Origin: Rhodanobacteraceae bacterium | GTDB lineage: Bacteria; Pseudomonadota; Gammaproteobacteria; Xanthomonadales; Rhodanobacteraceae | Assembly (NCBI GenBank): GCA_003142815.1 | Contig: PLNP01000016.1 | Location: forward strand, 1-48,626 | DNA length: 48,626 nucleotides | Direction: 5' to 3' | In this document: positions 30,799 to 33,524 of the stretch, in pieces | Numbering within the stretch: position 1 is the stretch's first letter | Layout: each line of letters starts with the position of its first letter | Notes under the pieces: generated by a model | What the model was told of the DNA's origin: nothing | Seen by the model: the letters and a program-made list of their open reading frames with translations, nothing else | Database searches by the model: none | Program-made: the position numbers and the translations under genes

Positions 30799-30920
30799 AT
30801 CAACCCCTGCTCGCGAAACCCGATGAATCTCGTCGCGCAGCCACGCGGCATCCTCGAACTCTAGATCCTGCGTGTGCTTGTACATCTATGCTTCGGACTG
30901 GCGGATTTTCGTGCTGATCT
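30799..30920 (-). pseudogene. Degenerate second copy of the uvrB 3' end
   Basis: On the minus strand [20 protein letters not shown] and HR copy the UvrB C-terminal [20 protein letters not shown] and HR. At DNA level about 122 bases match 31502-31624, with scattered changes and a one-base indel that breaks the last codons. Similarity stops at GTGCTGATCT on both sides. It lies in the same orientation as uvrB, about 700 bases downstream of the real end. Confidence 0.85.
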
Positions 30921-30945
30921 TCCGCACAACTCGCCGCAATGTGTA

Positions 30946-31149
30946 TCAGCCCTTGTGCTCGAGCCGTTTCACGGTAACCGTTTTGCCTGACAATCCAATT
31001 TCGACGAGGGCTTCAAGCCGAATCAACCGCTCGGTGAGAGCGACAATCTTGTCCTGCTGCGATTTGACGGTTGCCGACAAGCGTTCGACCTTGTCGTTCA
31101 TCCCGATCACGGTGGTGATCCCGTCCCACATTTTTTCGGTGATGCCCAT
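30946..31149 (-). CDS. Small coiled-coil protein of unknown function
   Basis: The 67-residue product (MGITEKMWDGITTVIGMNDK...) is mostly one amphipathic helix with heptads (VERLSATVKSQQDKIVALTE, RLIRLEALVEIG). It ends in a basic tail, KTVTVKRLEHKG. I do not recognise the family. Its ATG at 31149 overlaps the upstream stop as TGATG, so translation is coupled; a TTG at 31152 is the alternative. AGAGGA lies about 10 bases upstream. It pairs with the next gene, perhaps as the partner of a DNA-binding protein. A small toxin or a plasmid-maintenance factor is possible, but nothing in the sequence proves it. Confidence 0.65.
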   Translation of the reverse strand: MGITEKMWDGITTVIGMNDKVERLSATVKSQQDKIVALTERLIRLEALVEIGLSGKTVTVKRLEHKG

Positions 31150-31427
31150 CAAATTTTTTTCCTCTTTTCGAGCCGGGCGATTTTCCTGTTGGACGTCTCC
31201 ACGTACGCGACCGCATCATCGATCGCCGCGCTGGCGCGTGCCGTGCTCGCGACCATTCGATCAATCATGCCGTCGAGGAGTTGGTCGTCCTGAGATGGTT
31301 GAAACGACACCGCCGCGCGGCGCATGAATTCGCCCATCGACAGGCCGGCCGCTTTCGCGAGGGCGGCGATGTTGTCCTTCTCGGCGGCGCTGACGAGCAC
31401 CGGAATTCGCTGGGTTGCGGCGGCCAT
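31149..31427 (-). CDS. Ribbon-helix-helix-like small protein
   Basis: The 92-residue product has IPVLVSAAEKDNIAALAKAA followed by GLSMGEFMRRAAV. This is the beta-strand plus two-helix layout of ribbon-helix-helix DNA-binding proteins such as plasmid mobilisation (MobC-like) and antitoxin proteins. The C-terminal half is helical and basic at the end (NRKIARLEKRKKI). I prefer the ATG at 31427 with AGG eight bases upstream; ATGs at 31442 and 31472 are alternatives. GCACAT repeats just upstream of the start may be its operator. It is the first gene of a two-gene unit, about 70 bases downstream of the uvrB stop. Confidence 0.7.
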   Translation of the reverse strand: MAAATQRIPVLVSAAEKDNIAALAKAAGLSMGEFMRRAAVSFQPSQDDQLLDGMIDRMVASTARASAAIDDAVAYVETSNRKIARLEKRKKI

Positions 31428-31441
31428 GGGTTTTACCTGCA

Positions 31442-31469
31442 TGTGCATGTGCTGACCATGTCCAGTATA
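31442..31469 (-). promoter_or_regulatory. Possible promoter and operator of the two-gene module
   Basis: On the minus strand a TATACT -10-like box (31464-31469) is followed by GGACATGGTCA and a GCACATGCACATGC direct repeat next to the starts. Direct repeats over the start region suit autoregulation by a ribbon-helix-helix protein. A -35 box is weak. Confidence 0.4.
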
Positions 31470-31496
31470 CACTCGCCTGCATACGTTGCGGTCTCG

Positions 31497-33524
31497 CTAT
31501 CCAATCAAGCCCTGCTCACGAATGCGATGGATCTCGTCGCGCAGGCGCGCGGCATCCTCGAACTCCAGGTCCTGCGCGTGCTTGTACATCTGCGCTTCGA
31601 GCTGGCGGATTTTCGTGCTGATCTGGTGCGGCGTCAGCAAGTGATAGTCGATGGATTGCTCGGCGACCTTGCGCGCCGCCGCACCACCGCGACCGCGCGT
31701 TCGCTCCGATCCCGCATCGAAGCGCGCACCTTCCATGACATCGGTGATCTGGCGGACGATCGAGGTTGGCGTTATCCCGTGCGCTGAGTTGTATTCGACC
31801 TGCTTGGCGCGGCGGCGGTCGGTCTCGTCGATCGCCGCCTGCATCGAGCGGGTCACCCGATCGGCGTACAGGATCGCGGTGCCGCGCAGGTTGCGCGCGG
31901 CGCGGCCGATGGTCTGGATCAGCGAGCCGGTCGACCGCAGGAAGCCTTCCTTGTCCGCATCGAGGATCGCGACCAGCGAGACTTCGGGCATGTCGAGTCC
32001 TTCGCGCAGCAGGTTGATGCCGACCAGCACGTCGAACTTGCCGAGGCGCAGGTCGCGAATGATCTCGACGCGCTCGACCGTCTCGATGTCCGAGTGCAGG
32101 TAGCGCACGCGGATGCCGTGCTCGTCGAGATACTCGGTGAGGTTCTCGGCCATGCGCTTGGTCAAGGTCGTGACCAGCACGCGATCGCCGACTGCGATAC
32201 GCGCATTGGCCTCGGACAACAGATCGTCGACCTGGGTGCGCGCGGGTCGCACCTCGATGCGCGGATCGACGAGCCCGGTCGGGCGCACCACCAGCTCGAC
32301 CACGTTGCCCTGCGATTTCTCGATCTCGTACGGCCGCGGCGTCGCCGACACGAAGATCGTGCGCGACGCGCGCTGTTCCCATTCCTCGAATTTCAGCGGC
32401 CGATTGTCGAGCGCGGAGGGCAGGCGGAAGCCGAATTCGACCAGGGTTTCCTTGCGCGAGCGGTCGCCCTTGTACATCGCGCCGATCTGCGGAACCGTCA
32501 CATGCGATTCGTCGACGACGAGCAACGCATCGGGCGGCAGATAATCGAACAAGGTCGGCGGCGGCTGGCCCGGCGAGCGCCGGGTCAAATGCCGCGAATA
32601 GTTCTCGATGCCCTGGCAGAAGCCGACCTCGGCCATCATCTCGATATCGAACTGGGTGCGCTGCTGCAAGCGCTGCGCCTCGACCAACTTGTTCGCCTTG
32701 TACAGATGTTCCAGACGATCCTTGAGCTCGATCTTGATCGCCTCGATCGCGTTGAGCACGCTTTCGCGCGTGGTCGCGTAATGCGTTTTCGGATACACCA
32801 CGAAGCGCGGGATCCTGCGGATCGTCGCACCGGTCAGCGGATCGAACAGCGACAGGTTTTCGATGTCGCCATCGAACAATTCGATGCGCAGCGCCTCGGT
32901 TTCCGACTCGGCCGGGAACACGTCGATGATCTCGCCGCGCACGCGGTAGCTGCCGCGCCGAAGTTCGACATCGCCACGCGTGTACTGCAACTCGGTCAGA
33001 TGACGGATCAGGGTGCGCTGGTCGGTATGCTCGCCGCGGGTGAGGATCAGGCGCATCTGCAGGTAATCCTCGGGATCGCCGAGACCGTAGATCGCCGACA
33101 CGGTCGCGACGATCAGCGCATCCGAACGCGACAGCAGCGCCTTGGTCGCGGCAAGACGCATCTGCTCGATGTGTTCGTTGATCGAGGCGTCCTTCTCGAT
33201 ATAGGTATCGCTGCCCGGAATGTAGGCTTCCGGCTGGTAATAGTCGTAATAGCTGACGAAGTATTCGACCGCGTTGTGCGGGAAGAACTGCTTGAATTCG
33301 CCATAGAGCTGCGCGGCGAGCGTCTTGTTTGGCGCCATCACCAGGGTCGGTTTCTGGATGCGCTCGACCACGTTCGCGATCGTGAACGTCTTGCCCGACC
33401 CGGTCACGCCGAGCAGGGTTTGCTGCGCGAGTCCGGCCTCGAAGCCCTCGGTCAGGCGCGCGATCGCGGCCGGCTGGTCGCCGGCTGGCTGGAAGGGGGA
33501 AACGAGCTGGAAGCGATCGGTCAT
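31497..33524 (-). CDS. uvrB: Excinuclease ABC subunit UvrB
   Basis: UvrB is the damage-verifying helicase-like subunit of nucleotide excision repair. It is handed to DNA by UvrA and recruits UvrC. The 675-residue protein has the Walker A loop [10 protein letters not shown], the beta-hairpin region [12 protein letters not shown], the DESHVT box, the helicase motif [23 protein letters not shown], and the C-terminal UVR domain. It is intact, but a decayed copy of its last about 120 bases lies downstream, and two small genes lie between. uvrA is also in this window (45.7 kb). Confidence 0.98.

What the first reader, a model, noticed from the sequence alone, without database searches (positions are those of the whole stretch)
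30799..31624. Integration scar at the uvrB 3' end with a degenerate duplicate copy
About 122 bases of the uvrB 3' end (31502-31624) recur in the same orientation at 30799-30920 with scattered changes and an indel. The intact UvrB tail is the copy joined to uvrB; the decayed copy lies on the far side of two small foreign-looking genes. This is the layout left when an element inserts into a gene's 3' end and restores it with its own copy. I know of no described element that uses uvrB this way. The divergence of the two copies indicates an old event or an incoming heterologous copy.
Basis: partly seen in the sequence, partly recalled or inferred. Interest (0 to 1): 0.8.

Follow-up and report, generated by a model that had tools for sequence, protein, structure and literature searches.

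The report
Displaced uvrB tail beside foreign operon
A small two-gene operon with relatives on plasmids sits directly behind the DNA-repair gene uvrB, and a broken second copy of the end of uvrB lies behind the operon, which looks like the scar of one old insertion; that a mobile element aims at uvrB is not shown.

Summary
Window 31498-31624 (end of uvrB, minus strand) and 30793-30920 align at 86.7% over 128 columns (16 substitutions, one indel). The 23 nt at the gene-internal edge are identical; similarity stops at the stop codon. The distal copy has a TAG in frame and a frameshift.

Between them lies an operon: a ribbon-helix-helix (NikA-like) gene and a 67-aa gene. The pair occurs on plasmids and alone in other chromosomes. 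uvrB then tRNA-Val is the usual order: 18 of 20 relatives inspected have it, and none of the 20 shows a comparable second tail. So this lineage gained DNA behind uvrB and displaced the old gene end.

That an element uses uvrB as its site is not shown. The 577-bp interval has no integrase, and tail surveys of 233 family, 369 class and 378 order genomes (overlapping) gave only one other clear isolated tail (G444, different inner edge) and one ambiguous contig end (G110). I favour one-sided homologous recombination (0.45) over a stripped integrative element (0.32). A new example of a known kind of scar; moderate interest.

The parts
31497..33524 (-). uvrB, complete, 675 aa
   Evidence: ORF; Pfam UvrB, UvrB_inter, UVR
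31498..31624 (-). intact uvrB tail, proximal copy of the repeat
   Evidence: alignment
31602..31624 (-). 23-nt identical inner edge, proximal copy
31428..31496 (-). 69-bp gap with TATACT and three CATG boxes, probable promoter-operator of the small operon
   Evidence: boxes chosen after looking, no shuffle control
31149..31427 (-). ribbon-helix-helix gene, NikA-like, 92 aa
   Evidence: PF21983 6.5e-8, 33.1 bits against cut-off 27, for the 107-aa frame 31149-31472; plasmid relatives
30946..31149 (-). 67-aa gene of coiled-coil character (my reading), start overlaps the stop of the gene before
   Evidence: same partner in 3 of 3 plasmids opened
30793..30920 (-). decayed uvrB tail, distal copy, TAG and 1-nt insertion
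30898..30920 (-). 23-nt identical inner edge, distal copy, 25 bp behind the 67-aa gene
28657..28731 (-). tRNA-Val(gac), the usual downstream neighbour of uvrB in relatives, here 2765 bp from the uvrB stop

Best explanation
Incoming DNA that carried the end of a closely related uvrB followed by a self-contained two-gene operon was joined to the chromosome by homology on one side (uvrB) and by a non-homologous joint on the other, inside the resident uvrB about 40 codons before its stop (homology-facilitated illegitimate recombination). The product keeps one complete uvrB, puts the operon behind it and strands the resident gene end downstream, where it decayed. Shown: the anatomy, the decay, the single tail in the relatives inspected, the plasmid kinship of the operon, the usual order uvrB to tRNA-Val. 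Inferred: the direction of the event, the donor and the kind of recombination.
For: Similarity stops at the stop codon, as expected for two gene ends from different surroundings, not for a duplicated stretch. The insert is 577 bp and needs no enzyme. Isolated uvrB tails are rare: 1 further clear one (G444) and 1 ambiguous (G110) in surveys of 233, 369 and 378 overlapping genomes, and the G444 edge lies 25 nt elsewhere, so no shared core is seen. The operon stands alone in other chromosomes (G597, G299, G439). The decayed tail lies on the tRNA-Val side. A published parallel proposes this route for displaced gene ends (PMC5361080, passages).
Against: The 23 identical nt at the inner edge are unlikely by chance (about 0.04 if 16 substitutions were spread evenly, my arithmetic; 1 of 135 comparable natural pairs, not independent) and fit a crossover core. 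The route is rare in experiments (passage in PMC5361080). No genome with uvrB directly followed by this operon and a single tail was found; only a few genomes were compared for this. No relative nearer than about 87% in uvrB was at hand.
Confidence: 0.45

Rival explanations
1. Remnant of an integrative element that inserted into the uvrB 3' end by site-specific recombination at the 23-nt inner edge and restored the gene with its own tail; integrase and nearly everything else were later deleted.
For: Classical layout; identical core at the gene-internal edge, in a stretch where relatives vary; repeat length within the known range (163 bp at icd, passage in PMC6379469; up to about 250 bp, passage in PMC10111431); NikA-like gene with plasmid relatives.
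Against: No integrase in the 577 bp; 25 bp between the second gene and the core leave little room for an arm; the surveys show no recurrent uvrB-tail element, though they looked for second tails, not for integrases beside uvrB, and fragmented assemblies can hide such tails.
Confidence: 0.32
2. The operon DNA was captured at a staggered chromosome break in the uvrB tail, whose repair duplicated about 125 bp on both sides of the insert.
For: Both copies share lineage-specific bases at the inner edge; no donor uvrB is needed.
Against: The outer edge of the repeat at the stop codon would be a coincidence, and in G444 similarity also ends 9 nt before the stop.
Confidence: 0.13
3. Tandem duplication of one unit of uvrB tail plus operon, followed by loss of the second operon.
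For: Start-to-start spacing of 704 bp would be the unit.
Against: Similarity should go on past the stop codon; it does not. The operon DNA occurs once in the genome. None of 20 relatives shows it.
Confidence: 0.05

Closest known systems
e14 integration into the 3' end of icd in E. coli
   Same: Gene end displaced and left as a pseudogene copy (163 bp), gene kept whole by the incoming copy (PMC6379469, passage).
   Different: e14 is a 15-kb prophage; here 577 bp without an integrase, in uvrB.
Displaced effector and immunity genes or orphan 3' ends in Vibrio cholerae T6SS and Rhs loci, explained by homology-facilitated illegitimate recombination
   Same: Homology on one side, new genes inserted, old gene part shifted downstream (PMC5361080, passages).
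   Different: Those are fast-changing toxin loci; here a conserved repair gene and a single event.
NikA/TraJ-type ribbon-helix-helix mobilisation proteins
   Same: Pfam NikA-like domain over cut-off; weak NCBIfam MobA and TraJ matches below cut-off; one RHH relative beside a relaxase gene in G252.
   Different: No relaxase beside it here; followed by an unnamed 67-aa gene; solitary in G597, G299, G439.

Membership tests
Integrative element in a gene 3' end (icd/e14 type) | direct repeats of the gene end on both sides, gene kept complete | tested here: met
Integrative element in a gene 3' end (icd/e14 type) | integrase gene inside the repeats | tested here: not met
   only two small genes in 577 bp; the 7 Phage_integrase matches of the genome are on other contigs
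Integrative element in a gene 3' end (icd/e14 type) | empty site in relatives | tested here: met
   0 of 20 relatives with a comparable second tail; tRNA-Val within 91-366 bp in 9 of 20; none is a strain of the same species
Integrative element in a gene 3' end (icd/e14 type) | same site used by related elements | tested here: inconclusive
   second tails only in G110 (contig end) and G444 (other inner edge, linkage open) among inspected genomes; G653, G717, G732 not followed up
Integrative element in a gene 3' end (icd/e14 type) | excision and circular form | not testable with these tools
   no reads at hand
Homology-facilitated illegitimate recombination product | one homologous side and one non-homologous joint | tested here: inconclusive
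   inner edge of the distal copy is an abrupt joint; the homologous side cannot be seen without the donor
Type II toxin-antitoxin pair | autoregulated two-gene operon with a ribbon-helix-helix protein | tested here: inconclusive
   overlapping genes, CATG boxes in 13 of 17 loci; second protein matches no family above cut-off; toxicity not testable here
NikA-type mobilisation module | RHH protein encoded with a relaxase | tested here: not met
   no relaxase between the repeats; seen only for the G252 relative

The most novel reading that the evidence does not exclude
The ribbon-helix-helix plus 67-aa pair is an undescribed self-regulated module that settles on plasmids and in single chromosomal gaps without a recombinase of its own, and the uvrB tail is a captured host gene end that let it ride by homology into a place behind a conserved gene: a route for cassette-sized DNA to settle behind housekeeping genes.
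Probability: 0.15. Interest if true: 0.65.

Novelty: new member of a known kind. Interest (0 to 1): 0.38.

Why it matters
It adds uvrB, a repair gene, to the genes whose ends can be displaced by incoming DNA, and it sets two routes (integrase or one-sided homology) against each other on a small, readable case. A duplicated gene end beside foreign genes is not by itself proof of an integrative element. The gene pair found on the way is spread over plasmids and chromosomes and has no name as a pair in the libraries searched.

Tried and rejected
Tandem duplication: disfavoured, similarity stops at the stop codon. A longer repeat beyond the inner edge: a likeness seen by eye was not above chance. 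Second copy of the operon in the genome: none.

Viral contigs: 9 loci. L077, L079, L080 hold complete or nearly complete uvrB. L078 holds the end of uvrB at the contig edge, then tRNA-Val and an integrase (PF00589 2.4e-9) beside that tRNA, so its provirus seems to use the tRNA, not uvrB. The other five gave weak matches (2e-6 to 0.003) and were not looked at. The operon proteins found no relative in viral contigs and one weak one, not opened, in the single genome-contig scan.

Phages: 6 records hold a tail match, 3 of them annotated as uvrB or excinuclease, 3 without annotation. Plasmids: 26 records, 17 annotated uvrB, 9 with no listed gene, these 9 being 3.7-4.9 Mb long. None was opened, so their neighbours were not checked.

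Second tail matches: of five family genomes G102, G154, G172 have them in frames of 609-727 aa, read as uvrC or a second uvrB (inference), G001 in a 73-aa frame at a contig start, G110 in a 22-aa frame. Of the 9 other class genomes, 8 in frames of 586-688 aa, only G444 in a short one (98 aa). The five g9 genomes with two DNA-pattern matches: four have the second protein match in 612-653-aa frames, G256 has one match only. G653, G717, G732 of the order survey were not followed up.

G444: cysM beside uvrB as the native order was not borne out; cysM was not found in the other uvrB stretches fetched (L103-L120 and L122, 2.4-9.2 kb; L103, of its only held family mate, is 2.6 kb), so whether the isolated tail marks a former uvrB site is open. 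G110: one contig has uvrB beside glk, another a zeta-toxin gene between uvrB and glk and no second tail by glk; this may be two strains in one bin. In 13 further g25 stretches glk was found behind uvrB in 9, at 27 to 1443 bp.

Names for the pair: no PADLOC match; PHROGs matches weak and without function; PDB profile search led by designed repeat proteins, NikA at E 0.16. Structure prediction was not run.

Papers: four answered searches on uvrB as a site listed no element in the uvrB 3' end. Passages opened: PMC7466150 (UvrB as cargo of an ICE), PMC12441131 (an ICE between uvrB and secA in Streptococcus agalactiae), PMC4894674 (engineered insertion in a plasmid uvrB). The other listings were not opened. 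The library is open-access only.

Full report
WHAT IS THERE. uvrB runs on the minus strand from 33524 to 31497 and is complete. Its last 127 nt (31498-31624) recur in the same orientation at 30793-30920: 128 columns, 16 substitutions, one indel, 86.7%. Two edges are telling. At the gene-internal edge 23 nt are identical (31602-31624 and 30898-30920), and nothing upstream of them is similar above chance. At the other edge similarity ends at the uvrB stop codon. All 17 differences lie in the other 105 columns. The distal copy has a TAG in the uvrB frame and a 1-nt insertion that none of 20 relatives shows.

WHICH COPY CHANGED. Both copies were compared with the uvrB tails of 20 relatives: 14 of the 15 same-genus genomes listed, and six from other genera of the family. 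At 8 substituted sites at least 14 of the 20 agree with the intact copy; at 2 sites at least 16 of the 20 agree with the distal copy; the rest are mixed. So much of the change is decay of the distal copy, with some change in the functional one. The 23-nt edge is informative because it varies between species: among 135 pairs of natural tails that differ by 8-20% in the rest (pairs of the 20 relatives and the window's intact tail, not independent), the mean is about 8 differences in these 23 nt and 1 pair has none. The two window copies have none although they differ by about 15% in the rest. Either they share a recent source, or strand exchange happened there. The intact tail resembles the same relatives as the gene body (G015, G012, G006, G013), so a clearly foreign tail is not indicated.

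THE NEIGHBOURHOOD. tRNA-Val(gac) lies downstream of uvrB in 18 of 20 relatives, at 91-366 bp in 9 and at 1.1-5.0 kb in 9, and thrS was found beyond it in 14 of 20. Nine of the wide gaps and one short one were listed for open frames; by my reading of the translations most hold ordinary chromosomal genes. No relative shows a downstream match to its own uvrB tail comparable to the window's. In the window the gap is 2765 bp: operon, decayed tail, a frame ending in a DGFD motif (no Pfam family), an IS3-type orfA fragment (PF01527 6e-10), a HigB-like toxin gene (TIGR02683 2e-21, over cut-off) and a weak HigA-like partner (TIGR02684 0.01, below cut-off). The decayed tail lies on the native downstream side; the operon is what came in (inference).

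THE OPERON. The first gene (31149-31427, 92 aa) has a NikA-like ribbon-helix-helix domain (PF21983 6.5e-8, over cut-off). The second (30946-31149, 67 aa) overlaps it, looks coiled-coil by eye and matches no family above cut-off. tblastn finds the first protein on 6 plasmid records at up to 55.7% identity; in the 3 opened the second gene follows directly (partner identity 54-56%). In genomes 7 of 369 in the class (4-row profile) and 21 of 233 in the family (7-row profile), window genome included, match at 1e-5. Of the 25 family matches the 24 outside the window were examined; 20 have a frame matching the second gene at E up to 1e-2, several weakly. In G597, G299 and G439 the pair stands alone between unrelated chromosomal genes without convincing flanking repeats. 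In G252 an RHH relative lies beside a relaxase gene (PF03432 1.1e-18). Upstream of the first gene 13 of 17 loci carry CATG-type boxes (chosen after looking, no shuffle control); the window has TATACT and three such boxes. I read this as a self-regulated operon; its function is unproven.

SEARCH FOR OTHER DISPLACED TAILS. With the 54-residue UvrB tail, 224 of 233 family genomes match and 6 have two matches; of the five besides the window genome only G110 has a second match in uvrB-tail context, 63 nt at a contig end with a zeta-toxin gene (PF06414 1.3e-39) about 27 bp behind the stop, while another contig of that bin has uvrB beside glk. A DNA pattern matched 166 of 233, 8 with two. In the class 334 of 369 match, 10 with two; of the nine others only G444 has a short frame. 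In the order 359 of 378 match, 4 with two; three were not followed. The samples overlap, the match lists were cut, and integrases beside a single uvrB were not sought. G444 is a second clear isolated tail: 111 columns at 84% to its own uvrB tail, on another contig, between a broken type IIG restriction gene (PF07669 8.9e-13; PADLOC type IIG and DrmMI models) and cysM, ending 9 nt before the place of the stop codon and starting 25 nt nearer to it than in the window. Its uvrB contig ends 192 bp behind the stop, so linkage is open.

HOW IT MOST LIKELY AROSE. A gene-end-restoring integration and a one-sided homologous recombination both predict a complete gene, foreign DNA and a stranded old gene end. 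For integration speak the identical inner edge and the classical layout (e14 in icd, 163 bp displaced, PMC6379469 passage; identity blocks up to about 250 bp, PMC10111431 passage). Against it speak the missing integrase, the 577-bp interval with 25 bp between the second gene and the core, the lack of recurrence in what was surveyed, and the other edge in G444. For one-sided recombination speak the small insert, the single occurrence, no need of an enzyme, and the proposed parallels (PMC5361080 passages); against it its rarity, the missing donor and the identical 23 nt. I put 0.45 on it, 0.32 on an integrative remnant, 0.13 on duplication at a captured break, 0.05 on tandem duplication.

VERDICT. 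It is a new example of a known kind of scar.

Noticed in passing
window 30946-31427; L009, L010, L011, L093, L094, L095, L126-L149: A conserved ribbon-helix-helix plus small coiled-coil-type gene pair, on plasmids and solitary in chromosomes, often with CATG boxes at its promoter.
   Followed up: partly
L101 8956-9065 and L102 204-313 (G444): A second isolated uvrB tail between a broken type IIG restriction gene and cysM in an unrelated genome.
   Followed up: partly
L097 3392-4213 and L098 (G110): Zeta-toxin gene directly behind a uvrB end on one contig, while another contig of the bin has uvrB beside glk.
   Followed up: partly
L078 330-1830: Viral contig with uvrB end, tRNA-Val(gac) and an integrase gene next to that tRNA: the tRNA behind uvrB seems to be a provirus site.
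   Followed up: partly
window 30066-30579: IS3-type orfA fragment abutting a frame ending in a DGFD motif, like the DGFE end of a protein next to uvrB in G019 (L057).
   Followed up: no
window 29182-29865: HigB-like toxin gene with a weakly HigA-like partner between tRNA-Val and the decayed uvrB tail.
   Followed up: no
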